From Streptosporangiaceae bacterium (lineage in GTDB: Bacteria > Actinomycetota > Actinomycetes > Streptosporangiales > Streptosporangiaceae), in NCBI GenBank assembly GCA_030038015.1, contig JASHPR010000469.1, positions 1 to 41,273 on the forward strand: a DNA stretch of 41,273 bases, read 5' to 3'. The notes under the pieces are model-generated. The model worked only from the letters and a program-made list of their open reading frames with translations, was not told the origin of the DNA and made no database searches. Positions 8,669-29,513 of the stretch are shown piece after piece. Both the position numbers and the translations under genes were made by a program. The stretch's first letter is position 1. Each line of letters opens with the position of its first letter.

Positions 8669-10390
8669 GTGGGACGATGTGACCTCAGGGTGGTGGAAGT
8701 GGTCGCAGTCGCGTCATCGTCGCAGGCTAACGGAGAGACGCTGGCCTCGCTGCGGAGCCAGCTGACCAATCTGCGTGCCCTACTGGTGCTGTCCATCCTG
8801 ATGACCGAGAGCGCCGACGAGGAGCAGATACTGCGGCTCGCCACCTCTGCAGCCTCCTCGCTGGGCGTGTGGCGGGTCGCCGGGTTCGTGATCGGTGACC
8901 GGTGGTGGAGCGGAAACCAGGCCGCCGGCCCCGTCGACCCGGCGCTGGCTGGGCAGCTCTGCGAACTGCCCGAGACGGGTGGCCCGGTGACGGCTCTGGA
9001 CGCCGTGTGGGCCTGGGCGTACCCGCTGCGCAGCATCGGAGGGCGGCTCGGCTACCTGGTTGTCCGCGCCCCGCGCGAGCCCGCGGCCGAAGAACAGTTC
9101 CTGGTACAGGTGCTGGCCCAGCAGACCGGCGTGGCGGTATCCAACGCCAAGCTGCACGGCCGGGAACGGGAAACCGCGCAGCAGCTGGCCCAGACCAACC
9201 AGGCGCTGAAGGAGACGGTCGCCACTCTCAGCCGCGGCATGCAGATCCACGAGCGGCTCACTGCCGTGGCCGCGGCCGGGGAAGGGGCGGCAGGGATCGC
9301 CGAGGCCCTGAACGACCTGACCGGGCTGGCGGTCGCGGTGGAGGACCGGTACGGCAACCTGATTGCCTGGGCCGGGCCGGGCAAGCCTGCCTGCTACCCC
9401 AAGCCGTCGGCCTACGACCGGGAGCGGCTGCTCCGCCGCCTCATTACCGCGGGCCGGTCGGTGCGGGATTGTGACCGGGTCGTCGCGCTGGCCTCGCCGC
9501 GTCCTGGAGTGCTGGGCCTGCTGGCTCTGATGGACCCGGGCCGTCACGCGAGCACGACGGACGTGATGGCCCTCGAGCACGGTGCCACCGTGCTGGCGGT
9601 CGAGCTGGCGCGGCTGCGCGGGCTGGCCGACACCGAGCTGCGGGTAGGCCGTGAGCTGGTGCGCGACCTCCTCACCGGCACCGACGACGAAAGTGCTTAC
9701 CTGCGCGCCGAGGCACTGGGCTATGACCTGGGGCTGCCGCATCAGGCGGCGGTGGTGGAGGTCAGCGAAGGTTTCCCCGCGCACGAGGATGTGCTGCACG
9801 CCGCCAGCCGTGCGCTGCGTCGTCAGCAGCTGCCCGGCCTGCTCGGCACGATGGCAGGGACCGTGGTCATCCTCGCCCCGGGCGGTGGCACCGATTGGGA
9901 GACGCTGCGCCTGGCCATCGTGGCTGAGCTGGGCGGAGGCCGCTGCCGGGTGGGCGTGGGTGACCCGTACCCGCGGCCGTCGCAGCTGGCCCAGTCGCTG
10001 CGTGAGGCGCGCCTGGCGCTGCGCCTGCAGAAGGCCTCATCGGCGGTGGAGCGGACGTCGGTCTTTGCCGACCTCGACGTGCTCAGGATCCTGGCATCCG
10101 TCGAGGACCTGGCCGATGTGGAGGGCTTCGTGCACAAGTGGCTCGGGACCCTGGCCGATTACGACGGGCGCAAGCACACCGAGCTGGTGACGACCCTCAC
10201 CCAGTACCTCCGGCACGGCGGCGGTTATGAGGCCACCTCTCGCGCGCTGTCCGTGCACCGCAGCACGCTGAAATACCGGCTGCAGCGGATCCGTGAGCTG
10301 ACCGGCTTCGACCTGGGCGATCCCGAGACGCACTTCAACCTGCAGCTAGCGACGAGGGCCTGGCTGACCCTCCAGGCCCTCCGCGGTTGA
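8669..10390 (+). CDS. PucR-family (GAF/CdaR-like plus C-terminal HTH) transcriptional regulator 1
   Basis: C-terminal LSVHRSTLKYRLQRIRELTGFDLGDPETHFNLQLATRAW; paralogous to 20556..22313; exact start uncertain. Confidence 0.85.
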   Translation: MGRCDLRVVEVVAVASSSQANGETLASLRSQLTNLRALLVLSILMTESADEEQILRLATSAASSLGVWRVAGFVIGDRWWSGNQAAGPVDPALAGQLCELPETGGPVTALDAVWAWAYPLRSIGGRLGYLVVRAPREPAAEEQFLVQVLAQQTGVAVSNAKLHGRERETAQQLAQTNQALKETVATLSRGMQIHERLTAVAAAGEGAAGIAEALNDLTGLAVAVEDRYGNLIAWAGPGKPACYPKPSAYDRERLLRRLITAGRSVRDCDRVVALASPRPGVLGLLALMDPGRHASTTDVMALEHGATVLAVELARLRGLADTELRVGRELVRDLLTGTDDESAYLRAEALGYDLGLPHQAAVVEVSEGFPAHEDVLHAASRALRRQQLPGLLGTMAGTVVILAPGGGTDWETLRLAIVAELGGGRCRVGVGDPYPRPSQLAQSLREARLALRLQKASSAVERTSVFADLDVLRILASVEDLADVEGFVHKWLGTLADYDGRKHTELVTTLTQYLRHGGGYEATSRALSVHRSTLKYRLQRIRELTGFDLGDPETHFNLQLATRAWLTLQALRG

Positions 10391-10457
10391 CCCCCCGGCC
10401 CCGGTTGGGCCCGCCAGGACGAAGCCGCCGGTGCCCGGCCGCCGTAACGTCCAGGTC

Positions 10458-11435
10458 ATGGACGCCCCCGATGACCTGGACCTTTTTGGGCGAATGTGTT
10501 TTTTGCGGTTTTTTGAGGAGCGGGTCGACTCGCTTTACCGGCAAGGGCAGGTTCACGGGCCGGTGCACCTGGGGCTTGGCCAGGAAGCCATCGCGGTCGG
10601 GGCGGCGTCGGTGCTCCGCCCCGACGACTACTCGCTGGGCACGTACCGGGGCCATGCGCACGCCCTGGCCCGCGGCGCGCCGCCCGGCGCGGTGCTCGCG
10701 GAGCTGCTGGGCCGGGCCGGCGGAATCTGCGCGGGCAAGGGCGGGTCGATGCACATCACCAGCGTCGAGCATGGGTACTACGGGTCCTACGCCATCGTCG
10801 GCGCGCACCTGCCGATCGCCTGCGGGCTCGGCTGGGCTGCGAAGATCCGCCGTAGCGGCCAGGTGACGGTGTGCTTCTTCGGCGACGGGACCACCAACAT
10901 CGGTGCGTTCCACGAGGCGGTGAACCTGGCCGCGGTCTGGCGGCTGCCGGTCGTCTTCGTCTGCGAGAACAACTGGTACATGGAGTACACGCCGATCGGC
11001 GACGTCACACCGGTAGCGCTGCCCGCCGCCGACCGGGCCGCCGCCTACGGGCTGGACCGGGTCGTGGTGGACGGGAACGACGTCACCGCCGTACGGCAGG
11101 TGGTCGCCGCGGCGGTGGACGCGGCCCGCGGTGGGCAAGGGCCGAGCCTGGTCGAGGCGCAGACCTACCGGCTGAAGGGTCACTCGGCGGCCGACGGCGG
11201 CACCTACCGCCCAGCCGAGGAGGTGGCCCGGTGGCGCGAGCGTGACCCGCTGGTGCGCACCAGAGCCGCGCTGCTGCAGGCGGGCATGGCCGAGGAAAAG
11301 CTGACCGAGATCGAATCGCGCATCCGGTCTGACGTGGCCGGCCTGGCGCGGGAGGTGCTCAGCCGGCCCGCACCCGATCCGTCCGGCGCCTGGGCGGACG
11401 TATGGAGCGACGGGAGCTGGCAGTGGCGGAACTGA
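10458..11435 (+). CDS. Thiamine-diphosphate-dependent dehydrogenase E1 alpha subunit (acetoin/pyruvate dehydrogenase family)
   Basis: CAGKGGSMHI; TPP motif GDGTTNIGAFHEAVNLAAVWRLPVVFVCENN. Confidence 0.9.
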   Translation: MDAPDDLDLFGRMCFLRFFEERVDSLYRQGQVHGPVHLGLGQEAIAVGAASVLRPDDYSLGTYRGHAHALARGAPPGAVLAELLGRAGGICAGKGGSMHITSVEHGYYGSYAIVGAHLPIACGLGWAAKIRRSGQVTVCFFGDGTTNIGAFHEAVNLAAVWRLPVVFVCENNWYMEYTPIGDVTPVALPAADRAAAYGLDRVVVDGNDVTAVRQVVAAAVDAARGGQGPSLVEAQTYRLKGHSAADGGTYRPAEEVARWRERDPLVRTRAALLQAGMAEEKLTEIESRIRSDVAGLAREVLSRPAPDPSGAWADVWSDGSWQWRN

Positions 11436-12403
11436 CCTACCGGCAGGCCATCGCCGCGGCGCTGGCCCAGGAGATGGCCCGGGACGACCGGGTTGTCCTG
11501 CTCGGCGAGGACGTGGCCTCCGGCGGCGTCTTCAAGACCACCGGAGGGCTCCGCGAGCGGTTCGGGCCTGACCGGGTCTGGAACACGCCGATCTCCGAGC
11601 AGGCCATCGCGGGCGCCGCGATGGGCGCGGCCATGGGCGGGCTGCGGCCCGTCGCGGAGATCATGTTCGCCGACTTCTACGCGGTCTGCTGGGATCAGGT
11701 GGCCAACGAGATCGCCAAGGTCCGTTACATGACCGGCGGCCAGGTCAGCATGCCGTTGGTGCTGCGCGGCGCGAACGGCTCGGGCGGCTTGGGGTTTGGC
11801 AGCCAGCACGGCCAGTCGCTGGAGAACTGGGCCATGTGCGTGCCCGGGCTGAAGATCGTCTCACCGGCGGGCCCGGCTGAGGCATTCGGGCTGCTCGCCG
11901 CAGCGATCCGGGACGACGATCCGGTCATCGTGTTCGAGCACAAGGCGCTGTATGGCCGCAAGGAGGAGGTCGGCGACGGCGAGCACGTGCTTCCGCTGGG
12001 CCAGGCCCGCACCGTGCGGGCGGGCCGCGACATCACGCTGGTGGGGTTGTCAATCACCGTCGGTGCCTGCCTGGCGGCCGCCGATGCGCTCGCCGACGAG
12101 GGCGTGCGGGCTGAGGTCCTCGACCTTCGGACACTGGTGCCGCTGGATGCGGCAGCGGTGCTGGCGTCGGTTCGCCGCACCGGGCGGCTGGTGGTGGCCG
12201 AAGAGAACCCGGGCCAGCTCGGCTGGGGCGCCGCGATCGCGGCGATCGCCGCGGAGGAGGCGTTCCGCGACCTCGCCGCACCGGTGACCCGGGTCAGCGG
12301 CGGCAATGTCCCGCTGCCGGTGGCGGCCTCGCTTGAGGCCGAGGTGGACGTCTCGGCCCAGCGCATCGCCGCTGCCAGCCGGGCCGTGCTGAGCGATCGC
12401 TGA
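11402..12403 (+). CDS. Thiamine-diphosphate-dependent dehydrogenase E1 beta subunit
   Basis: LTYRQAIAAALAQEMARDDRVVLLGEDVASGGVFKTTGGL...RVWNTPISEQAIAGAAMGAAM; overlaps E1 alpha. Confidence 0.9.
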   Translation: MERRELAVAELTYRQAIAAALAQEMARDDRVVLLGEDVASGGVFKTTGGLRERFGPDRVWNTPISEQAIAGAAMGAAMGGLRPVAEIMFADFYAVCWDQVANEIAKVRYMTGGQVSMPLVLRGANGSGGLGFGSQHGQSLENWAMCVPGLKIVSPAGPAEAFGLLAAAIRDDDPVIVFEHKALYGRKEEVGDGEHVLPLGQARTVRAGRDITLVGLSITVGACLAAADALADEGVRAEVLDLRTLVPLDAAAVLASVRRTGRLVVAEENPGQLGWGAAIAAIAAEEAFRDLAAPVTRVSGGNVPLPVAASLEAEVDVSAQRIAAASRAVLSDR

Positions 12404-12607
12404 GCCGCGCGCGCAAGGCCGTCTTTCCTGTCCCGCAAGGGCCGGACCTGCCGGCGAGTTCGTCCAGGCAGGTCATGGCCGGCGGGGTGGCGCCGGACAC
12501 AGAGTGAACCGTGGGCCCAGGGGCCAGGCCAGCAGGGCACGGTGCTGCCGCAGCCTAGGCAGCCGCGCCACACATAGAGGAACCCGTGAGCTGGAGAGGT
12601 GACATCG

Positions 12608-13648
12608 ATGGAGATCCGCGGTGAAGAGGTGCTGCTTCCCGTCTCGGCCGTGTCGGCGTTCCCGCGGCCGCACTGGCTGCAGGGCCGCGTCCTCGGCTCG
12701 CTGAGCGAGCCCGTCTACCGCAGCCACAACCTGCGGGTGGCCTACGAGGACGCTTGCAAGATCTGCTCGCGCGAGCAGGAGAAGGCCGGGCTGGACATCC
12801 TGTGCGACGGTGCGCAGTACTACGAGTGGGAGGCGCCCGGGTTCCAGCTGGAGCCGATCTTCCACTTCATCCCGGAGAACCTGGGCGGTTTCGCACCGTA
12901 CGGCCCGCCGGGTGATGGGCCGAAGTACCGGCCGTTCTATCAGGCGCTCGTCAAAGACAAGATCACCTGGGAACGGCCGATCTTCGAAAGCGTGGTCATG
13001 ACCATGCAGAACGCCACCGACAAGCCGTTCAAGGTCGCGTTCCTCGGGCCCGCCCAGCAGAGCATCATCGTCAAGGACGAGTACTACGGTGACCAGCTCG
13101 CGGTGGCCAGGGACCTGGCGATCGCGCTGAACAAGGAGCTCAGGTACCTGGTGAGCATGGGCCTGGAGGCGGTGCAGCTGATCGACGTGCTGCCGCCGTA
13201 CACCACCGACATGTGGCAGATCGAGATGCAGAACATCCTGTTCGACGGGGTCGACGCGATCAAGTTCTGGCACGTCTGCTACGGCAGCGTGGACGGCCAG
13301 CGCGACGTGTTCGACGATCACGCCACGTCGATGATGCCGCTGTTCAAGGAGTCGCCCGCGGACGTGATCCACCTCGAGTTCACCAGCAAGGGCTTCAACG
13401 AGCTGGAGGCCTTCCGCGACTTCCCCACCGACAAGGTGCTCGGTGTCGGGGTGGTCGACGCCAAGAACCTGCAAGTGGAAACCGTCGAGCAGATCGAGGC
13501 CAGGATCCGCCGCGCGCTCGAGGTAGTGCCCGCCGGCCGGCTGCTGGTCGCGCCCGACTGCGGGCTCGGTTATTTCAGCCGCACCACCGCCTATGCGAAG
13601 CTGCGCAACATGGGCCAGGCGGCCCGGTCTGTGCGGAGCACGCTCTGA
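12608..13648 (+). CDS. MetE-family zinc transferase 1 (cobalamin-independent methionine synthase II/epoxyalkane:CoM transferase-like)
   Basis: SAFPRPHWL N-terminus; zinc ligand pattern FWHVCYG...IHLEFTSK...LLVAPDCGLGYFSR; alternative GTG start at 12599. Confidence 0.75.
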   Translation: MEIRGEEVLLPVSAVSAFPRPHWLQGRVLGSLSEPVYRSHNLRVAYEDACKICSREQEKAGLDILCDGAQYYEWEAPGFQLEPIFHFIPENLGGFAPYGPPGDGPKYRPFYQALVKDKITWERPIFESVVMTMQNATDKPFKVAFLGPAQQSIIVKDEYYGDQLAVARDLAIALNKELRYLVSMGLEAVQLIDVLPPYTTDMWQIEMQNILFDGVDAIKFWHVCYGSVDGQRDVFDDHATSMMPLFKESPADVIHLEFTSKGFNELEAFRDFPTDKVLGVGVVDAKNLQVETVEQIEARIRRALEVVPAGRLLVAPDCGLGYFSRTTAYAKLRNMGQAARSVRSTL

Positions 13649-13653
13649 TGGCG

Positions 13654-13697
13654 CCGCGTGGGCCGGGACGCGGTCAGCAAGAGCCCGGCCCACGCGG
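13654..13697 (+). terminator. Strong inverted repeat, 14-bp perfect stem, 16-nt loop
   Basis: CCGCGTGGGCCGGG / CCCGGCCCACGCGG beginning 6 nt after stop of MetE-like 1. Confidence 0.6.
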
Positions 13698-13745
13698 ATT
13701 AACCCTGCGCGCCGGGCGGCGGCGCTTGATGCGAAGGCGAAGACC

Positions 13746-14369
13746 ATGACCGCACAAGCACGGCATGAGGTGCTGGGCCTGCAGCTGAGCCTCGGCGATC
13801 ACATCTGCGGCTTCTACCGCCGGCCAGCCGAGCGCGACGACATCCTCATCCCATTCCTCGTCGAGGGACTCAAGGCGGGGGACAAGTGCACCTGCGTGGT
13901 GGACAGCTGCACCCCCGGCGACGTGCTGGCCAGGATGTCCGAGCACATCGAGGTGGGCCCGTACGTATCGGTCAGTCAGCTCGAGGTGCTCGACTCCTAC
14001 GACACCTACCTGGCCGAGGGCGGATTCCTGCCCCAGCGCATGCTCGAGTTCTGGGAGGCCAAGGCCCGGCAGGGCCCGTGCGCGGACGGGCCGGGGCTCG
14101 CCCGGAACATCGGGGACATGAGCTGGGCGCATCGCAACGAGCGCGTCGTCGGGGACCTGATCGGCTACGAGTCCGAGCTGAACCGCATCATGTCAAACTT
14201 CCCCCAGGTCAACCTCTGCCTGTACGACCTGACCAGGTGCTCCGGCGAGCTGATCATGGACGTGCTGAAGACGCACCCCAAGGCGCTTCTCGGGGGCATG
14301 GTCATCGACAACCCGTACTACCTCGAGCCCGACGAGTTCCTGGCCAGCCGCATGGACCGGGAGAGTTGA
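13746..14369 (+). CDS. MEDS-domain (DcmR-like sensory) protein 1
   Basis: LGDHICGFYRRPAERDDILIPFLVEGLKAGDKCTCVVD...IGYESELNRIMSNFPQVNLCLYDLTRCSGELIMDVLKTHPKALLGG. Confidence 0.75.
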   Translation: MTAQARHEVLGLQLSLGDHICGFYRRPAERDDILIPFLVEGLKAGDKCTCVVDSCTPGDVLARMSEHIEVGPYVSVSQLEVLDSYDTYLAEGGFLPQRMLEFWEAKARQGPCADGPGLARNIGDMSWAHRNERVVGDLIGYESELNRIMSNFPQVNLCLYDLTRCSGELIMDVLKTHPKALLGGMVIDNPYYLEPDEFLASRMDRES

Positions 14370-19839: not shown

Positions 19840-19937
19840 GGCTGGCAGTCCGGCAGATATTCGTCTCCCCGGGGGGAACTCCATGTTTGGTTTCCGAAGT
19901 ACTATCCGCCTATCGCGGTCACGAGGTGGTGGGCAAG

Positions 19938-20546
19938 ATGACCGGACCAGTGCCCAGCGGCATCGATGACATAGGCCTGGCGCCGGGGAGTCACGTATGC
20001 GCGTTCTACCGCGGGGACGCTGACCGGGACCGGCTGCTCACCGGCTACCTGGGCGCGGGACTGGCCGCCGGGGACAAGTGCATCTGCGTCGTCGACTCTG
20101 CGCTCACGGCAAAGCGGCTGAAGTCGTTGCCCCGCTCCCGCAGCCAGCCCGGCCCGCCGGACGGGCAGCTGGATATTCACCTTCCTGAGTCGACCTACCT
20201 GGCCGGCGGCGAGTTCACGACCAGCCACATGCTCGCGTTCTGGACCGAAAGCATGATCAAGGCGGAGATCGACGGCTACTCGTTCTTCCGCCTGGCCGGC
20301 GAGATGACCTGGGCTCTGCGGGACGCGCCCGGGGTGGAGCACCTGATCGGCTACGAATCCGAGCTGAACCGGGTCACCTCCAGCTACCCGGTCATCGTGC
20401 TCTGCCTGTACGACCTGGACCGGTTCAGCGGCGAGATCGTGGTGAACGTCGTGAAGACTCATCCGCAGGTGCTGGTCCAGGGCATCCTCGTGGAGAATCC
20501 TTACTACGTCGGGCCTGATGAGTTTCTCAGGTCGGCGGGCGCCTGA
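19938..20546 (+). CDS. MEDS-domain (DcmR-like sensory) protein 2
   Basis: LAPGSHVCAFYRGDADRDRLLTGYLGAGLAAGDKCICVVD...IGYESELNRVTSSYPVIVLCLYDLDRFSGEIVVNVVKTHPQVLVQG; parallels 13746..14369. Confidence 0.75.
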   Translation: MTGPVPSGIDDIGLAPGSHVCAFYRGDADRDRLLTGYLGAGLAAGDKCICVVDSALTAKRLKSLPRSRSQPGPPDGQLDIHLPESTYLAGGEFTTSHMLAFWTESMIKAEIDGYSFFRLAGEMTWALRDAPGVEHLIGYESELNRVTSSYPVIVLCLYDLDRFSGEIVVNVVKTHPQVLVQGILVENPYYVGPDEFLRSAGA

Positions 20547-20555
20547 CCCGCTGCG

Positions 20556-22313
20556 ATGGCTGCCGAACGAACCGCAGCAGACGGGCTGGCGCCCCCGGCT
20601 GTGCTCCGCCCCGGCGCACCCGCGGACGGCGCGCCGCGCGCAGCACCCAGGGACACCGCGCAGGAGAACCTGCGGGAGCGGCTGAGTGAGTTCCGGGCGT
20701 TGCTGGTGATCTCGCTGCTGATGACCGAGTCGGTCAATGAGGACCAGATCCTGGAACTCGCTGCCTCGTCGGCACCGGGTCTTGGCTCGTGGCGGGTCGA
20801 AGGCTACAGCTTCACCGACGGCCAGTGGCGTCCCGGCATCCTCTGCCCCGATCCCTCGCCCCGCGGCCTGGCCGGCCAGCTGGCCACGCTGAGCGCCGCC
20901 GGCGGCAAGGTGGAGCTGCCCGGCCGCGGATGGGCGTGGGCGTACCCGCTGCGTGGCGCCGATGGCCTGCTGGGCCACCTTGTCGCGTCCTGTGACCTGG
21001 AGCCATCCGCGGAGGAGCGGTTCTTGATCCAGGTGCTCGCGCAGCAGACCGGCGTTGCCGTGTCGAACGCCCGGCTGCACGCCAAGGAGCGCGCCACCGC
21101 GGCGGAGCTCGCCGCCACGAATGCCACCCTGGCCGGCACGGTGACCAGCCTGCAGCGCAGCATGGACATCCATGAGCGGCTCACCCGGGTGGCGGTCTCC
21201 GGTGAAGGCCAGCCGGGAATCGCCGGGGCGCTGCACGAGCTCACCGGCATGCCAGTGGCGATCGAGGACCGGTACGGCAACCTGTCCGCCTGGGCCGGGC
21301 CGGGCCAGCCCAGCCCTTATCCGAAGGAGTCCTTCGCCAAGCGTGAGCAGGTGCTCCGCCGGCTCATGCGGGCCGGCAGGCCGGTTCGCGATGGGGAACG
21401 GCTCATCCTGCTCGCCTCCCCGCGATCCGACGTGATCGGCGTGCTGGCGCTCATCGACCCCGGGCACAGGGCCGACAAGGCCGACCTGGTGGCCCTGGAG
21501 CACGGGGCGACCGTGCTCTCGATGGAGCTGGCCCGGCTGCGTGGCATCGCCGATACCGAGCTGCGGCTGCGCCGCGATCTCGTGCACGACCTCCTGGCCG
21601 GGATCGACGATGAGAGCGCGCTGCCCCGGGCCGAGGCTCTTGACTATGACCTGCGGCGCCCGCACCGGGTGGTGCTCGTCGAGGGCAGAGGACGCGCCCG
21701 GGCCCACGACGCCCTGCTGGGCGCGGTCCGGCGGGCCATGCGCCGAGGGCGGCAGGCGGGGCTGTTCGAGACCTGGTCCGGCGACGTCGCCATCGTCACC
21801 GCCGATCAGGTCCCCTGGGAGCAGTTCCGGCGCGCGATCATGTCCGACATCGGCGGTCAGTGCTACATCGGGGTCGGCGGCTTCTGTGCCCGTCCCTCGG
21901 AGCTGCCGCGGTCGCTGCGCGAGGCGCAGCTGGCGCTGCGGCTGCAAAAGACGCTGCTGCCAGGAAGCGGCGCGTGCGAGTACCCCAAGCTCGGCATCTT
22001 CCGCATGCTCGCGGCCATCCCGGACCTCAGCGACGTGGACAGGTTTGTCCGGGAGTGGCTCGGCAGCCTGCTCGACTACGACGAGCGCCGCAAGGCAGAA
22101 CTGGTGCATACGCTGACCCAGTACCTCGAGCATGGCGGCAATTACGATGCCACCGCCGCCGAGTTGTCGGTGCACAAGAGCACGCTGAAGTACCGGCTGC
22201 AGCGGATCCGCGAGCTGACCGGGCTGGAGCTGAACGACCCCGACGTTCACTTCAACCTGCAGCTCGCCACCCGGGCCTGGGGGACACTCCAGGCCCTGCA
22301 CGACGAGCGCTGA
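20556..22313 (+). CDS. PucR-family transcriptional regulator 2
   Basis: LSVHKSTLKYRLQRIRELTGLELNDPDVHFNLQLATRAW; long paralogy with 8669..10390. Confidence 0.85.
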   Translation: MAAERTAADGLAPPAVLRPGAPADGAPRAAPRDTAQENLRERLSEFRALLVISLLMTESVNEDQILELAASSAPGLGSWRVEGYSFTDGQWRPGILCPDPSPRGLAGQLATLSAAGGKVELPGRGWAWAYPLRGADGLLGHLVASCDLEPSAEERFLIQVLAQQTGVAVSNARLHAKERATAAELAATNATLAGTVTSLQRSMDIHERLTRVAVSGEGQPGIAGALHELTGMPVAIEDRYGNLSAWAGPGQPSPYPKESFAKREQVLRRLMRAGRPVRDGERLILLASPRSDVIGVLALIDPGHRADKADLVALEHGATVLSMELARLRGIADTELRLRRDLVHDLLAGIDDESALPRAEALDYDLRRPHRVVLVEGRGRARAHDALLGAVRRAMRRGRQAGLFETWSGDVAIVTADQVPWEQFRRAIMSDIGGQCYIGVGGFCARPSELPRSLREAQLALRLQKTLLPGSGACEYPKLGIFRMLAAIPDLSDVDRFVREWLGSLLDYDERRKAELVHTLTQYLEHGGNYDATAAELSVHKSTLKYRLQRIRELTGLELNDPDVHFNLQLATRAWGTLQALHDER

Positions 22314-22524
22314 CCGGCCGCCGCCGTCCTGGTGCCCCGCTCCGGTCCCGGTCACCGCTGCCGGGTACACCGCCCGGCCGGGCCGCTGAGAACGGGCCGA
22401 ATTCTGCCCCGTCATGGGCATCGGGCGCGCAAGATCGGTCCCCCCGTAGGGAAGAAACCCGCGGGCAGCGCGGCCTACGCTCGGCGCACTCACAGTCACC
22501 TCGCGACCGGAAGGAGCAACCAGG

Positions 22525-23628
22525 ATGCTCGTCGGCGGTCAGGAGATCTTGCTGCCCACCACTATGGTCGGCAACTACCCCAATCCACGGTGGTATGACG
22601 GGCACGCGTTCGCCACGCTGCCCAAGGGTGAGTTCATCCACGACTCGATCAGCAAGGAGGCATTCGAGGACGTGGTCGGTGCGATCGTGCATGACCAGGA
22701 AGCGGCTGGCCTGGACGTGATCAGCGACGGAAAGGTGTACGGCGGCGATTCCCCATACGGCACGATCCTCTACTACTACCTGGAGCGTGTTTCCGGCTAC
22801 CGGCTGTCCGGGCCGCCGATCGGGTTGCCCATCTACTCCACCTTGTACTCCCCCACCTGCATCGGGGAGATCCGCCGGGAGGTCCCGTTCCACCTGGTCA
22901 ACCTGCGCGCGGTGCGGAAGGCGACGAAGAAGCCGGTCAAGGTGTCCTACACGGGCCTGGGCGTGATCGCCGCAGCCACCACGAACCTGCACTACAAGGA
23001 CACGAGGGAAATCGCCATGGCGCTGGCCAGGGCGTTCAACGAGGACTTCAGGGAACTCGCCGACAATGGCTGCGACATCATCCAGCTGGACGAGTTCGTC
23101 TGGCCGTACGGCATGGGCGACTGGGAGATCGAGGCGCTCAACGCCGCGGTCGAGGGTGTGGACTGCCAGTTCTGGGTGCACACCTGCTGGGGCAACTACT
23201 CCGGCACGCCCGCCTACTTCCCGGATGAGACGGAAACCGAGTTCGGCGCCTTCGTGCTCGACAAGCGCGCTGCCGACGCCCCGGCGCCGGAGCGCGCATG
23301 GGCGATCTTCCCGCACGTGCTGAACGCGAACATCCACGCGCTGAATTACGAGGTCGGCCGCACCGGGCCGGACGACCTCAAGCCGCTCACCGACAACAAC
23401 TGGTCAAAGCCGTTCGTGGCAGGCGTGATCGACGTCAAGTCCACGGTCACCGAGAGCGCCGATGAGGTCGCCGACCGGATCAGGCAGGTCCTCGAGTACG
23501 TCCCGGCGGACCGGCTCGGGCTGTCCACCGACTGCGGGCTGATCAACTTGCCACGGATGATCGCCGCGGGCAAGCTGCGGGCACTCGCCGACGGCGCCGC
23601 CCTGGTCCGCGCGGAACTCCGAGCCTAG
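22525..23628 (+). CDS. MetE-family zinc transferase 2 (epoxyalkane:CoM transferase-like)
   Basis: AAGGAG RBS; LLPTTMVGNYPNPRWY; zinc pattern WVHTCWG...NYEVGR...LGLSTDCGLINLPR. Confidence 0.75.
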   Translation: MLVGGQEILLPTTMVGNYPNPRWYDGHAFATLPKGEFIHDSISKEAFEDVVGAIVHDQEAAGLDVISDGKVYGGDSPYGTILYYYLERVSGYRLSGPPIGLPIYSTLYSPTCIGEIRREVPFHLVNLRAVRKATKKPVKVSYTGLGVIAAATTNLHYKDTREIAMALARAFNEDFRELADNGCDIIQLDEFVWPYGMGDWEIEALNAAVEGVDCQFWVHTCWGNYSGTPAYFPDETETEFGAFVLDKRAADAPAPERAWAIFPHVLNANIHALNYEVGRTGPDDLKPLTDNNWSKPFVAGVIDVKSTVTESADEVADRIRQVLEYVPADRLGLSTDCGLINLPRMIAAGKLRALADGAALVRAELRA

Positions 23629-23639
23629 GGGGACCTTGC

Positions 23640-23670
23640 CGGGCCCCGGCCCGTGCCGGGCCGGGGCCCG
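23640..23670 (+). terminator. Very strong GC hairpin, 14-bp perfect stem, TGC loop
   Basis: CGGGCCCCGGCCCG TGC CGGGCCGGGGCCCG, 12 nt after stop of MetE-like 2. Confidence 0.65.
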
Positions 23671-23857
23671 CCCCGGTGCTGGGCCGCGGCGAACCCCGGA
23701 ACTCGCGATTGCCCTGGGCGGGGACCACGGTCGGCCCAGCGCCCGGCCGTTGGCGCCGAGGTCGAAGAAAGCCCCGAACCTCACCCTCCCAGGACAGCGA
23801 AAGTTCCGTTTCGGCGTGCCTATGGTTCGGTCACACCATGAGAGCCGGAGGCGCGCC

Positions 23858-24619
23858 GTGCCGGATGCACCCACGTTCCTGACCCTGCCAGCCCGGTCTG
23901 CCAAGCCGCGCACCCGCGGGATCACCCATGTTCTGGACTCCGGGCTGACGCCGGACGCCACCCGTGCCTTCCTCGAACAGGCTGCGCACCTGGTGGACAT
24001 CGTGAAGGTCGGCTGGGGCATCGGCTACGTGGATCCGGCCCTGAGCGTCCGGGTGAGCATGTGCCAGCGGTACGGCTGCCCGGTGTCGCTCGGCGGAACC
24101 CTGCTTGAGATAGCCGCGCTGCAGAACCGGGTCGCCGAGCTGCGGGACTGGGCAGGCGGCATCGGCGTCACCCACATGGAGGTGTCGAACGGGCTCTGCG
24201 CGCTGCCGGAGGGCCGCAAGCAGGAACTGATCACGGAGCTTGCCGCCGACTTCGTGGTGCTCGCCGAAACCGGCGCGAAGGACGGCAGCTACCCGCCGAC
24301 GCCGGCGGAGTGGGTCAAGGAGATGAGCCGCGACCTCGACTGCGGTGCCTCATGGGTAATCGCCGAAGGCCGGGAGAGCGGGACCGTGGGACTCTACCGC
24401 GCCGACCGTGGGGTCCGGGAGGACGTGGTCTCGGCCATCCTCGGCGTGATCCCGCAGGACAAGGTGATCTTCGAAGCGCCAGCCAAGAATCAGCAGGCCT
24501 GGTTCATCTGTCAGCTCGGCGCTGAGGCCAACATCGGCAACGTGGCGCCGTCCTGCGTGCTGCCGCTGGAGACACTCCGGCTCGGGCTGCGTGCGGACAC
24601 CGCCGGGCGGGCGCGCTGA
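23858..24619 (+). CDS. comA: Phosphosulfolactate synthase (ComA/XcbB-like), coenzyme M biosynthesis
   Basis: PRTRGITHVLDSGLTPDATRAFLEQAAHLVDIVKVGWGIGYV; VTHMEVSNG; VIAEGRESGTVGLY; VIFEAPAKNQQAWFICQLGAEANIGNVA; GTG start with GGAG upstream. Confidence 0.85.
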   Translation: MPDAPTFLTLPARSAKPRTRGITHVLDSGLTPDATRAFLEQAAHLVDIVKVGWGIGYVDPALSVRVSMCQRYGCPVSLGGTLLEIAALQNRVAELRDWAGGIGVTHMEVSNGLCALPEGRKQELITELAADFVVLAETGAKDGSYPPTPAEWVKEMSRDLDCGASWVIAEGRESGTVGLYRADRGVREDVVSAILGVIPQDKVIFEAPAKNQQAWFICQLGAEANIGNVAPSCVLPLETLRLGLRADTAGRAR

Positions 24620-24620
24620 C

Positions 24621-25586
24621 ATGAGCGCGGAGCCCGGGACCGGGGAACCGCAGCCCAACATGATCACCCGCCCGTATCGCGGCCTGTCGGTGCAGGACGT
24701 TGACATCCCGCTGATCCCATCGCGCATCGAGGCCCTGCTGCGAAGCCGCGACATCTACCGGCGGACCACGTTCATCGTCCTGCGCAACGGGCCGCGAGCT
24801 GCGCTGGTCGCGGTGCGGCCGGAGCGCCCGGGCCAGCTTTTCTCGCCCGTGGCGGAGCTGCGTGTGCTGTCCGGCCCGACTGCCACGCTGTGGATCGATG
24901 AGCCCTCGGCGGATGTCGGCAACGCGTCGGCCCTCGCCGCCGCCGCGCTCGCGCACCGCCGCGACGGCGTCCTCGCCTACGTGGTCCACGGTCGCTTCGA
25001 GCATGTGAACTTCATCTGGCGGCCGGCACCGCTCACCGTCCGCGTGACCGAGGTCGTCCCCCCGCACCCGCCGAAGCTCCTGGCCATGGCCGAGCAGGTG
25101 ATCGCCTTCGACGAGGATCTGCCGCCGGTCACGCTCGCGCTTGACGCCGTCGACGTGCGGCAGCTCATGGCGGCCACTCCGGCACCTCACTATCTGCTGC
25201 CCTGCCGCGGCAGCGGCGTGGCAGCCAGCCAGGAGGTCAGCTTCCTGGACTGCCATCCGCCCTACCACCCGGACTGGCTGCTGATCGGCTGTGACCGGTC
25301 CCGCCAGTTCCACCAGCACTTCTACGGTGCCGAACCCAGGCGCGTCGAGCTGTGCCCCAAGCTGCGGGCGGCCAGCCTGCCGGGCGCGCGCGTGCTCACC
25401 AAATGCTGCCTGCTGGAACGGGGCGTTCAGGTGGATGGCACGACGGCGGTGGTGCCCTGGGGGGCAAACCTCGACGAGGTGCGCACCGCGCTGCGCGCGC
25501 TCTGTGGCCTGGCACCGGCTGATCCGCCGGCTCTCACCGCCCTGGCCTCGCCACCGGCGCTGGCCCTCCCGGGTGCCGGCCGGTGA
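24621..25586 (+). CDS. Conserved-looking protein of unknown function with 7 Cys in C-terminal half, inside CoM biosynthesis block
   Basis: ATG 1 nt after comA stop; HYLLPCRGSG, FLDCHPPYHPDWLLIGCDRSRQFHQHFYG, ELCPKL, LTKCCLLERG; 4-nt overlap with next gene. Confidence 0.8.
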   Translation: MSAEPGTGEPQPNMITRPYRGLSVQDVDIPLIPSRIEALLRSRDIYRRTTFIVLRNGPRAALVAVRPERPGQLFSPVAELRVLSGPTATLWIDEPSADVGNASALAAAALAHRRDGVLAYVVHGRFEHVNFIWRPAPLTVRVTEVVPPHPPKLLAMAEQVIAFDEDLPPVTLALDAVDVRQLMAATPAPHYLLPCRGSGVAASQEVSFLDCHPPYHPDWLLIGCDRSRQFHQHFYGAEPRRVELCPKLRAASLPGARVLTKCCLLERGVQVDGTTAVVPWGANLDEVRTALRALCGLAPADPPALTALASPPALALPGAGR

Positions 25587-26941
25587 GCACCGCGCACCCC
25601 GCCGACTCGCGCGTCTACGGCCACCTGTGGTCCACGCCGGAGGTGTCCGCGCTGTTCACCGACGAGGGCAGGACCCAGGCGTGGCTGGACATCCTGGCCG
25701 CGCTTGCGCAGGCACAAGCCGATGTCGGGCTGGTGCCGCGCGGCGCCGCGGACGCCATAGAAGCCAATGCCGATGTCTCCCGGCTGGATCTTGCCCTGGT
25801 GGCCGAGCAAACCAGGGCCACCGGCCACTCAACCCTCGGGCTGATCCGGGCGCTGCGCAGCATCCTGCCGGCGGAGGCGCGCGAGTGGGTCTACTACGGT
25901 GCGACCGTACAGGACGTGTCCGACACCTGGTTCGCCCTGGTCTTCAAGACCCTGGGTGCCATCGCCGAGCGCGACGTGGGCAGGATGCGGGACCGTGCCC
26001 TGGCTCTGGCCGCCGAGCACCGCGACAGCCCGATGTGCGGGCGCTCCCACGGTCAGCCCGGCCTGCCGGTCACGTTCGGCTTCAAGGCGGCCGTGTGGGC
26101 CATGGAACTCGACCGGCACCTGGCACGTCTCCGGCAAGGCCGGAACCGCTGGGAGCTTGTCCAGCTCGGCGGCGCGCTCGGCACGATGGAGTTCTGGGGT
26201 GAGCGCGCGCTCGGCCTGCTCGACGCCTTCGCGGCCCGGCTCGGCCTGGACGCCCCGGACGTGCCGTGGCTCACCTCGCGCGATGGCGTCGCGGAGTTCG
26301 TCTGGCTGCTCGCGGCGATCTCGGCAACGACCGGCAAGATCGGCAACGAGGTCTACCAGCTGCAGCGGCCAGAGATCGGCGAGGTCCGCGAGACGTTCAC
26401 CCCCGGCACAGTCGGTTCGATCACCATGCCGCACAAGCGCAACCCGGAGATCTCTGAGCACCTGGTCACCCTGTCCCGGGCGGCCCGGGCGCAGGCTGGG
26501 CTGGCCCTGGAGGGGATGGTCTGCGAGCACGAGCGTGATGGGCGCGCATGGAAGACCGAGTGGCTGGTGGTGCCCGAGACCGCCATGTACTTCGCGGCCT
26601 GTGTGGACGCGGGCGCGAGGATGCTCGAGGGCCTGTGTGTCGACACCGGGCGGATGCTCGCCAATCTCCGCGCCCACCGCGGGTACCTGCTCTCCGAGCC
26701 AGTGATGCGCGCGCTCGCCAGCACGCTCGGCAAGCACACCGCGCACGAGGCCGTGTACGCGGCCGCCATGGCCGGCATCGACAATCAGCAAGACTTCCGT
26801 GCCGCCCTGCGGGCCGACTCCCGCCTGGACGCCATCTCCGATGCTGAGCTGGACGAGTTGCTCGATGTCCGGGCCTCGCTCGGCTCATGTGCCGCGTTCG
26901 TTGACCGGGCCCGCCGGGCCTGCACCGGGGCCCCGCGGTGA
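25583..26941 (+). CDS. Aspartase/fumarase superfamily lyase 1 (adenylosuccinate lyase/CMLE-like; XcbC/D-type candidate)
   Basis: Superfamily signature GSITMPHKRNPEISE; GRSHGQPGLPVTFGFKAAVWAMEL. Confidence 0.85.
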   Translation: MSTAHPADSRVYGHLWSTPEVSALFTDEGRTQAWLDILAALAQAQADVGLVPRGAADAIEANADVSRLDLALVAEQTRATGHSTLGLIRALRSILPAEAREWVYYGATVQDVSDTWFALVFKTLGAIAERDVGRMRDRALALAAEHRDSPMCGRSHGQPGLPVTFGFKAAVWAMELDRHLARLRQGRNRWELVQLGGALGTMEFWGERALGLLDAFAARLGLDAPDVPWLTSRDGVAEFVWLLAAISATTGKIGNEVYQLQRPEIGEVRETFTPGTVGSITMPHKRNPEISEHLVTLSRAARAQAGLALEGMVCEHERDGRAWKTEWLVVPETAMYFAACVDAGARMLEGLCVDTGRMLANLRAHRGYLLSEPVMRALASTLGKHTAHEAVYAAAMAGIDNQQDFRAALRADSRLDAISDAELDELLDVRASLGSCAAFVDRARRACTGAPR

Positions 26942-27972
26942 CGGCCGAGTATGCCGGCATGGCGGCACCTCCCGGCTCCGCGGTGGCCTCGCCAGGCGCG
27001 GGGCCCTTGGCACGTTATCCCCGCGTCCGTCTCGTCCTGGAGCCAACGCCGCTTCATCCGGCGCCGCGGCTGTCCCGCGAGCTTGGCGTGCCGGTCCTGC
27101 TCAAACGCGACGACCTGGCCGGCGTCGGCCTTGGCGGCAACAAGCTGCGCGGGCTTGAGTACCTCATCGCCGACGCGCTCGGGCGTGGCTGTGACTGCCT
27201 GGTCACCGGCGCGGGCCCGCTGTCGAACTGGACAATGCTCGCCGCGCTGGCGTGCCTGCGGCACCAGATAGAGCCGCACATCGTGTGCTACGGCAGCTCA
27301 GCCGCTGACGAGGGCAACATGCGGCTGCACCGCTGGCTCGGGGTGGACCTACGGTTCACCGGTGACCCGGACCGGTCCTCAGTGGATGCCGGCATCGAGG
27401 CGGTCACGGCTGAGCTGCGCGCCGCAGGCAGCCGCCCGTACCCCATCCCGCGCGGCGGCGCGACTCCGCTCGGCGCGCTCGGCTACGTTCGCGCCAGTGT
27501 CGAGCTGGCCACCCAGCTGGATGCGCTTGGCGAGCGGCCCGCCGCGCTGTGGCTGGCGACCGGGTCGTGCGGCACGCAGGCCGGCCTGGTGGCCGGCGCG
27601 GCCCTGACCGCCGCGCCCTACGAGGTTGCCGGCGTCACCGTGAGCAGGCCCGTCGCTGACAGCCGCGAGCGGGTGCGGGTGCTGGCGGCCGGGGCTGCCG
27701 CGCTGGGCGGCATCCGCGCCCCGCTGAGGGAACCTGTTGTGCTCGGCGGCTGGATCGGGCCAGGCTATGGCGCCGCGTCGCGGGAGGGCCGGGCAGCGGC
27801 ACGCCTGGTGGCGACGATGGAAGGCGTCTTCCTCGACCCGGTGTTCGGGGCGAAGGCGATGGCCGCGCTGATCGCGGAGTGCCGGGCCGGCCGGGTCCGC
27901 GGCACCCAGGTTTTCCTGGTCTCCGGTGGTGCGCCCACGCTGTTCACCGGGGCAGATGGCGGCGTGCCATGA
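26938..27972 (+). CDS. PLP-dependent D-cysteine desulfhydrase/ACC deaminase-like enzyme (XcbE-type candidate)
   Basis: VPVLLKRDDLAGVGLGGNKLRGLEYLIADAL (PLP Lys in GGNKLR); TGAGPLSNWTMLAALAC; ATGSCGTQAGLVAGA. Confidence 0.85.
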   Translation: MTAEYAGMAAPPGSAVASPGAGPLARYPRVRLVLEPTPLHPAPRLSRELGVPVLLKRDDLAGVGLGGNKLRGLEYLIADALGRGCDCLVTGAGPLSNWTMLAALACLRHQIEPHIVCYGSSAADEGNMRLHRWLGVDLRFTGDPDRSSVDAGIEAVTAELRAAGSRPYPIPRGGATPLGALGYVRASVELATQLDALGERPAALWLATGSCGTQAGLVAGAALTAAPYEVAGVTVSRPVADSRERVRVLAAGAAALGGIRAPLREPVVLGGWIGPGYGAASREGRAAARLVATMEGVFLDPVFGAKAMAALIAECRAGRVRGTQVFLVSGGAPTLFTGADGGVP

Positions 27973-29513
27973 ACGGGGAGCCCCGCGTGGGCCCGCGACA
28001 GCCGCCGGAGGGCTACCTGGGTGCCACGGCCAGGATTACCAGCGGCCCCGCGCCGGAACTGGTTGCGGCCGGGTACGCGCTGGAGATCGCCGACGCTCCG
28101 CTGCTGCACCGCGGGCTGACCCTCGCCGATCTCGCCCACATGGTCGAGCTGGTCCGGTGCGGCGCCCTGTCGCGCGGGGAGGCGGCGCCGCTGTGCGCGG
28201 TGCTGCTCGGCCTGCTGGACTCCCCGCCAGCCGCGTTCCCTTACGACCCCGTGTACGGCGATGCGTACAACAGCAGGGAGCGGGAGCTGCAGCGACTCCT
28301 TGGCCAGGCGGCCGGCTGGCTGCACCTCGGCCGCACCCGCAGGGAGGCAGGCCGCATCGCTTTCCGGCTCGCGCTGCGCGGCAAGCTGCTCAGCCTGCAC
28401 GCCGATGTCATCGCATTCGCCGACGTAGCGGGCGGCCTCGAGGCCGAGCACGCCGCCACGATGTGGGCGGACAGCACCTATCTCCAGCCAGCGCAGCCGT
28501 CAACGTTCGGCCACTACCTGGGCGCGTTCGCAGAGCAGGCCGTACGGAACCTGGACCGTATCAAGGCCGCGTACGGCCATGCTGACATCTCGCCTGCGGG
28601 CGCCGGCGGGGCGGGCGGCTCCAGGCTGCCGCTGGACCGTGCCCGTCTTGCCCGGCTGCTCGGCTTCGGCTCCGTCGGCGCGAACACCCGCGACGCGATG
28701 TGGTCGACCGATGTGCTGGCGGATGCCATCGGTGCGGCGACACTCACCGTCGCGAGCCTTGAACAGCTGGCTGCGGATCTGGAGATATTCGCCAGCCCGG
28801 CATTCGGCTACGTGACGCTCGATGCCTCGCTATGCCGGGCCAGCGTGCTGATGCCGCAAAAGCGCAACCCTTACGCGCTTCCCGTGCTGCGGGGCGGAGC
28901 CGGAACGCTGGTCGGCCGCCTCACGGGGCTGCTCGCCACCGGCCTGACCCCATCGGCCCGCACCGACAACTGGCTCTACGCCTACGGTGAGGTCGCTGGC
29001 GCGATCGACCTGGCCGGGCGGCTCGTCCGCCTGGGATCCGCCGTGCTGGCCGGCCTGAGTGTGGACATCAGCGTGCTGGGGGAGCAGGCGGCCAGGGACT
29101 TCACCCTGGCGGCAGACCTTGCCGAGGACCTGTCGCTGCGCTTGCGGCTCGACTACCGCACCGCTTACCGCGTCGTCGGCCGGGCCGTTGCCACCGCCGC
29201 GGACAGCGGTGCGGCCGAGCTGACGGCGGCGCTTGTCAGCGCCGCAACCGCAGACATCACCGGAGCGCCGGAGCCGGCCGCGGCAGAGGCGGCCGCGGCA
29301 GAGGCGGTCGCCGCCGCAACGGATCCCGTCTCGGCCGTGACCGCCCGGGATGGCCTGGGCGGCGCGAGCCCCCGGCGGGTGCGGGAGCACGCGAGGCGCG
29401 TGCGCAGACGGGCGACGGCAGCGCGGCGGTGGAACTCCGGCCGCCGGGCCCAGATGGCCGAAGCCGAAGCTGCCCTGATCCGGGCGGTGCGCGACCTTCT
29501 GGAGCAGGCGTGA
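27969..29513 (+). CDS. Aspartase/fumarase superfamily lyase 2 (argininosuccinate lyase-like; XcbC/D-type candidate)
   Basis: ASVLMPQKRNPYALPVLRG signature; ATGA overlap with PLP gene; C-terminal Ala/Glu-rich extension. Confidence 0.8.
   Translation: MNGEPRVGPRQPPEGYLGATARITSGPAPELVAAGYALEIADAPLLHRGLTLADLAHMVELVRCGALSRGEAAPLCAVLLGLLDSPPAAFPYDPVYGDAYNSRERELQRLLGQAAGWLHLGRTRREAGRIAFRLALRGKLLSLHADVIAFADVAGGLEAEHAATMWADSTYLQPAQPSTFGHYLGAFAEQAVRNLDRIKAAYGHADISPAGAGGAGGSRLPLDRARLARLLGFGSVGANTRDAMWSTDVLADAIGAATLTVASLEQLAADLEIFASPAFGYVTLDASLCRASVLMPQKRNPYALPVLRGGAGTLVGRLTGLLATGLTPSARTDNWLYAYGEVAGAIDLAGRLVRLGSAVLAGLSVDISVLGEQAARDFTLAADLAEDLSLRLRLDYRTAYRVVGRAVATAADSGAAELTAALVSAATADITGAPEPAAAEAAAAEAVAAATDPVSAVTARDGLGGASPRRVREHARRVRRRATAARRWNSGRRAQMAEAEAALIRAVRDLLEQA

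What the first reader, a model, noticed from the sequence alone, without database searches (positions are those of the whole stretch)
24621..25586. Cys/His-rich unknown protein locked inside the CoM biosynthesis operon
Sequence: starts 1 nt after comA stop and overlaps the next gene by 4 nt. All 7 Cys are in the C-terminal half (LLPC, FLDCHPPYHPDW, IGCDRSRQFHQHF, ELC, TKCC, ALC). I do not recognise the family. Inference: candidate for a thiolation, persulfide-carrier, metal-binding or reductive step late in CoM assembly, or for CoM-thiol handling.
Basis: partly seen in the sequence, partly recalled or inferred. Interest (0 to 1): 0.78.

Follow-up and report, generated by a model that had tools for sequence, protein, structure and literature searches.

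The report
XcbA protein of bacterial coenzyme M operon
The gene is real and belongs to XcbA (Pfam DUF7714), an already named family that in bacteria is found almost only beside the genes for making coenzyme M; its exact chemistry is not settled by anything I could read, but five unchanging cysteines in a fold without known relatives point to a late step of coenzyme M assembly.

Summary
The ORF at 24621-25586 is confirmed: 1 nt after the comA stop, 4-nt overlap with the next gene, all seven Cys in the C-terminal half. The family is not unknown: NCBIfam NF052538 (XcbA family, 402 bits, cut-off 150) and Pfam DUF7714 (290 bits, cut-off 25). Orthologues were already noted in mycobacterial operons ('xcbF1', PMC8727900) and named XcbA in Xanthobacter Py2 (PMC11507031). 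The pathway paper (Wu 2022) could not be read. New here: in 396 genomes of the class, XcbA occurs in 15, all with ComA and a strong XcbD; 78 of 80 named homologous loci carry a CoM gene, the other two being cut by contig ends. Five Cys (195, 224, 245, 262, 263) are invariant in all 57 aligned homologues; Cys211 and Cys295 are not conserved. The confident AlphaFold2 model (pLDDT 94.9) puts the five just after the ends of strands and has no significant match in PDB or the viral library. Best reading: a dedicated enzyme of late CoM assembly acting after XcbD, with a Cys-built metal, Fe-S or redox centre; the decarboxylation that pathway logic leaves without an enzyme is my first candidate. The chemistry is inferred, not shown.

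The parts
24621..25586 (+). xcbA-family gene (DUF7714), 321 aa; the finding
25203..25205 (+). codon of invariant Cys195 (motif LLPCRG), 2 residues after strand 190-193
   Evidence: 57/57 homologues; DSSP of the model
25290..25292 (+). codon of invariant Cys224 (motif IGCxRSxQFHxHFYG), directly after strand 219-223
25353..25355 (+). codon of invariant Cys245 (motif CP), 2 residues after strand 240-243
25404..25409 (+). codons of invariant vicinal Cys262-Cys263 (motif KCCLLE), at the end of strand 258-262
23636..24619 (+). comA / xcbB (phosphosulfolactate synthase); start codon uncertain, Pfam domain at 23891-24598
   Evidence: PF02679 E 2.5e-74
25583..26941 (+). xcbD (aspartase/fumarase superfamily; NCBIfam '3-sulfopropionylcysteine synthase XcbD')
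   Evidence: NF052536 678.9 bits, cut-off 600
26938..27972 (+). xcbE-like PLP enzyme (D-cysteine desulfhydrase family)
   Evidence: NF052537 315 bits, below its cut-off of 450, still the best family
27969..29513 (+). xcbC-like argininosuccinate-lyase homologue (ATG at 27969; an upstream GTG at 27879 is also open)
   Evidence: NF052535 362.6 bits, below its cut-off of 575, still the best family
22525..23628 (+). MetE-fold protein in the place of epoxyalkane:CoM transferase (EtnE), the CoM-using enzyme
   Evidence: PF01717 E 3.4e-24; same neighbourhood in 24 of 45 full-length homologous loci

Best explanation
The gene encodes XcbA, a dedicated component of the bacterial coenzyme M pathway that works late in the route, on the branch opened by XcbD. 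ComA makes phosphosulfolactate, XcbC makes sulfoacrylate, XcbD joins it to cysteine, and XcbE (or another PLP C-S lyase) cleaves the cysteine part (from literature and NCBIfam names). XcbA most likely finishes the molecule: it takes the product of XcbD/XcbE to CoM, the removal of the spare carboxyl group being my first candidate. Its five invariant Cys would form a metal, Fe-S or redox-active thiol centre that holds the substrate thiol. Shown here: gene, family, operon position, co-occurrence, Cys conservation, predicted fold without a known relative. Inferred: place in the pathway after XcbD, nature of the centre, and the reaction.
For: Family: NF052538 and PF24830. Co-occurrence: XcbA in 15 of 396 class genomes, all 15 with ComA and with an XcbD match of at least 419 bits, a level only one other genome reaches (hypergeometric 3e-26). 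Nine genomes have ComA but neither XcbA nor a strong XcbD, so XcbA tracks the XcbD branch rather than ComA. Of 80 named loci 78 carry a CoM gene; eight of nine genomes whose locus lacked a nearby or complete ComA have it elsewhere. Independent draws from Actinomycetota and Chloroflexota also sit beside ComA, XcbC or XcbD, except one locus on a contig end. In Py2 each of three xcbA copies lies directly upstream of a ComA gene. XcbA and XcbD persist in two genomes without a convincing XcbE. Five Cys are invariant. Model pLDDT 94.9, no significant fold match.
Against: No reaction is shown. The distances between the Cys could not be measured (coordinates not released). PMC11507031 states that the Methylohalobius crimeensis cluster has no sequence homologue of XcbA and lists a sulfoacetaldehyde dehydrogenase in its place, so XcbA may be replaceable or may act on another intermediate. 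DUF7714 also occurs in Methanosarcina acetivorans, where the ComA model finds nothing. The decarboxylation assignment is by elimination. Genomes are related, so the p-value overstates independence, and the 419-bit line for XcbD was drawn after seeing the scores (next lower score outside the set 337).
Confidence: 0.5

Rival explanations
1. XcbA is not an enzyme of the pathway itself but a partner or carrier: it binds CoM, its thiol precursor or a metal through its Cys and passes it on, for instance to the zinc site of epoxyalkane:CoM transferase.
For: Five invariant Cys and conserved His; an EtnE-type gene lies within 8 kb in 24 of 45 full loci.
Against: 21 of 45 full loci have no EtnE-type gene nearby while 44 of 45 have XcbD. 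The many invariant non-Cys polar residues (Asp210, Arg226, Ser227, Glu266, His128) look like an active site rather than a carrier.
Confidence: 0.2
2. XcbA acts at the start of the pathway, with ComA: it supplies or handles sulfite, or channels phosphosulfolactate from ComA to XcbC.
For: Directly next to ComA in most loci: 39 with ComA upstream on the same strand, 13 with ComA downstream; in Py2 three of three copies.
Against: Nine class genomes have ComA without XcbA, none with a strong XcbD. In other loci XcbA adjoins XcbD and ComA lies elsewhere in the genome.
Confidence: 0.15
3. XcbA is the reductive, thiol-forming enzyme of a sulfoacetaldehyde-type last step, as MMP16/ComF is in methanogens, with an Fe-S centre.
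For: PMC11507031 lists sulfoacetaldehyde dehydrogenase as the functional analogue of XcbA; a DUF7714 protein exists in M. acetivorans; the Cys pattern could hold a cluster.
Against: No sequence match to a COG1900 or ferredoxin-type family in NCBIfam or Pfam; the cysteine-adduct route implied by the XcbD and XcbE names already brings in the thiol sulfur.
Confidence: 0.15

Closest known systems
XcbA family (NCBIfam NF052538; Pfam PF24830 DUF7714), with XcbA of Xanthobacter autotrophicus Py2 (Xaut_5051, Xaut_5070 and the copy beside Xaut_4872)
   Same: Same family by curated score; next to ComA, XcbC, XcbD and usually XcbE; all five Cys shared
   Different: About 41-43% identity to the Py2 copies; gene order differs (this window and most actinobacteria ComA-XcbA-XcbD-XcbE-XcbC, Py2 XcbA-ComA-XcbC-XcbD-XcbE)
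'xcbF1' hypothetical protein of mycobacterial and Nocardioides etn clusters (PMC8727900; WP_006247532, WP_011751547)
   Same: Same position between ComA and the next com gene; 58-61% identity
   Different: Named separately by those authors; same family by our scores
MMP16/ComF, methanogen CoM synthase (COG1900; PMC12068725)
   Same: Proposed late step of CoM formation
   Different: No sequence similarity found; different pathway branch
Thioredoxin-like 2Fe-2S ferredoxins (NuoE) and Suc_Fer-like proteins
   Same: Small Cys-rich alpha/beta domain, superficially similar order of elements
   Different: Profile comparison negative (probability below 1%); fold search negative

Membership tests
XcbA family (NF052538 / DUF7714) | Score above the curated cut-off | tested here: met
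   402.2 bits vs 150 and 290.2 bits vs 25
XcbA family (NF052538 / DUF7714) | Encoded in a bacterial CoM operon with ComA, XcbC, XcbD, XcbE | tested here: met
   XcbD above its cut-off, XcbE and XcbC best matches but below theirs
XcbA family (NF052538 / DUF7714) | Invariant Cys 195, 224, 245, 262, 263 | tested here: met
   57 of 57 aligned homologues, and all further full-length loci that could be read
XcbA family (NF052538 / DUF7714) | Biochemical activity of XcbA in CoM formation | not testable with these tools
   Wu et al. 2022 not held
MMP16/ComF (COG1900) | COG1900 domain plus ferredoxin domain | tested here: not met
   no Pfam or NCBIfam match other than DUF7714/XcbA
Thioredoxin-like [2Fe-2S] ferredoxin | Thioredoxin-like fold and sequence profile | tested here: not met
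   hhalign probability 0.1% for the NuoE profile; no thioredoxin-like ferredoxin among the 50 best fold matches of the C-terminal domain
Suc_Fer-like (PF06999) | Sequence profile | tested here: not met
   hhalign probability 0.6%

The most novel reading that the evidence does not exclude
XcbA is the terminal CoM-forming enzyme of bacteria, a thiol-acid decarboxylase with a new fold and a Cys-built metal or Fe-S centre placed just after the ends of its strands, and the DUF7714 relative in Methanosarcina marks an evolutionary link to archaeal CoM metabolism.
Probability: 0.25. Interest if true: 0.7.

Novelty: new member of a known kind. Interest (0 to 1): 0.4.

Why it matters
Coenzyme M lets aerobic bacteria use small alkenes and their toxic epoxides, including vinyl chloride. 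If XcbA carries out the finishing step, the bacterial route could be rebuilt from five genes, and a confidently modelled protein without any solved relative would become a clear target for structure and metal analysis. The strict co-occurrence also makes xcbA a useful genomic marker of CoM-making bacteria, better than comA, which also occurs without the rest of the pathway.

Tried and rejected
Sequence search of the PDB with the protein, the 57-row profile and the C-terminal profile: nothing significant. Fold search of the full model against PDB and BFVD and of the C-terminal domain against PDB: no match at E <= 0.001. Thioredoxin-like ferredoxin and Suc_Fer relationship suggested by the order of elements: profile comparison negative, rejected. 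Internal duplication of the two halves: negative. Literature: the primary pathway papers (PNAS 2022, JBC 2018) are not in the library; DUF7714 appears in no held paper. The M. acetivorans relative could not be fetched, because the control genomes have no handle and the only scan of genome contigs was used for bacteria.

Full report
What is there. The ORF at 24621-25586 on the + strand is real: 321 aa, one base after the comA stop and overlapping the next gene by GTGA. It has coding-type codon-position composition. Pfam names it DUF7714 (290 bits, cut-off 25) and NCBIfam places it in the XcbA family, CoM_XcbA_fam (402 bits, cut-off 150). The operon reads EtnE-like MetE-fold protein, ComA, XcbA, XcbD, XcbE-like, XcbC-like, inside a larger set of disulfide oxidoreductases, short-chain dehydrogenases, CoA transferases, a CoA ligase, MEDS and PucR regulators typical of epoxide breakdown through CoM.

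What was known. PMC8727900 (2021) noted the same gene between xcbB1 and xcbE1 in mycobacterial etn clusters, called it xcbF1 and suggested that it may explain missing intermediates. PMC11507031 (2024) speaks of XcbA of Xanthobacter Py2 as one of five CoM enzymes studied in Py2, functional analogue of a sulfoacetaldehyde dehydrogenase. PMC12068725 says the bacterial route has been completely determined in Py2. The source, Wu et al. 2022, could not be opened, so a published activity of XcbA cannot be excluded; this caps the novelty.

Is XcbA bound to CoM synthesis? In 396 genomes of the class, XcbA occurs in 15. All 15 have ComA, and all 15 have an XcbD match of 419 bits or more; only one other genome reaches that level (G226, 437 bits, without XcbA or ComA), and the next score outside the set is 337. 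Nine genomes have ComA without XcbA or a strong XcbD, so XcbA follows the XcbD branch, not ComA. The hypergeometric chance is 3e-26, which overstates independence because the genomes are related, and the XcbD line was drawn after seeing the scores. In 80 named loci from Actinomycetota, Chloroflexota, Pseudomonadota and others, 78 carry a CoM gene; the two that do not (L047, L094) are cut by contig ends. For L047 the ComA gene lies further along on the same contig; for L094 no ComA was found in the genome bin. Independent draws from the phylum and from Chloroflexota also lie beside ComA, XcbC or XcbD, except L155 on a contig end. In Py2 three xcbA copies each sit directly upstream of a ComA gene.

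Position in the pathway. In two genomes (Solirubrobacter soli, L081; a Solirubrobacterales MAG, L080) XcbA, XcbC, XcbD and ComA are kept, but the best XcbE match is only 98 and 20 bits. XcbA is therefore not just a partner of XcbE, and XcbE can perhaps be replaced by another PLP lyase (inference).

What the protein looks like. In 57 homologues Cys195, 224, 245, 262 and 263 never change, nor do His128, Asp210, Arg226, Ser227, Glu266 and Trp280; Cys211 and Cys295 vary. The AlphaFold2 model is confident (pLDDT 94.9, pTM 0.89). In it Cys195 follows strand 190-193, Cys224 follows strand 219-223, Cys245 follows strand 240-243, and Cys262-263 end strand 258-262. The C-terminal 115 residues fold on their own (pLDDT 92.4). 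Neither model has a significant match in 350,542 PDB chains, nor the full model in the viral library, and sequence searches of the PDB are empty. A thioredoxin-like ferredoxin relation was tested and rejected.

Mechanism. The NCBIfam names (XcbD as 3-sulfopropionylcysteine synthase, XcbE in the D-cysteine desulfhydrase family) imply that cysteine is added to sulfoacrylate and then cleaved. By simple atom counting the product still has one carboxyl group more than CoM. XcbA is the one constant operon member without a family-level reaction, so the removal of that group, perhaps by way of a transient thioaldehyde as in thiol-dependent decarboxylases (analogy from general knowledge), is the reading I commit to: about 0.5 for a late-step enzyme in general, about 0.25 for the specific decarboxylase with a Cys-built centre.

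Verdict. A well supported orthologue of a named but poorly explained family.

Noticed in passing
L018:12001-12860 (CP000782.1 85927-86825): In the deposited Py2 plasmid the xcbA copy beside xcbB1 lacks 4 bp relative to the copy Xaut_5051 and is frameshifted, with no CDS listed; Xaut_5051 and Xaut_5070 are intact. This may be why xcbA was left out of early operon descriptions.
   Followed up: yes
control genome Methanosarcina acetivorans (not fetched): A DUF7714 protein above the Pfam cut-off (below the XcbA cut-off) in a methanogen in which the ComA model finds no match; the only hit among 14 control genomes.
   Followed up: partly
genomes G017, G019, G022, G056, G058, G100, G325, G333, G349: Nine genomes of the class have ComA but no XcbA and no strong XcbD: ComA must serve something else there.
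   Followed up: no
L080, L081: CoM clusters with XcbA, XcbC, XcbD and ComA but no convincing XcbE anywhere in the genome.
   Followed up: partly
L019, L020, L052: A TIGR03564 F420-dependent LLM oxidoreductase recurs near the CoM genes in three actinobacterial clusters; in L052 also a metallo-beta-lactamase/rhodanese protein a few kb away.
   Followed up: no
window 8669-14369 and 19887-23628: Two similar sets of genes in one window: PucR-type regulator, MEDS-domain protein and MetE-fold protein each occur twice.
   Followed up: no
window 26938-27972 and 27969-29513: XcbE and XcbC of this window are the best match to their families but score below the NCBIfam cut-offs (315 vs 450, 363 vs 575).
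   Followed up: no
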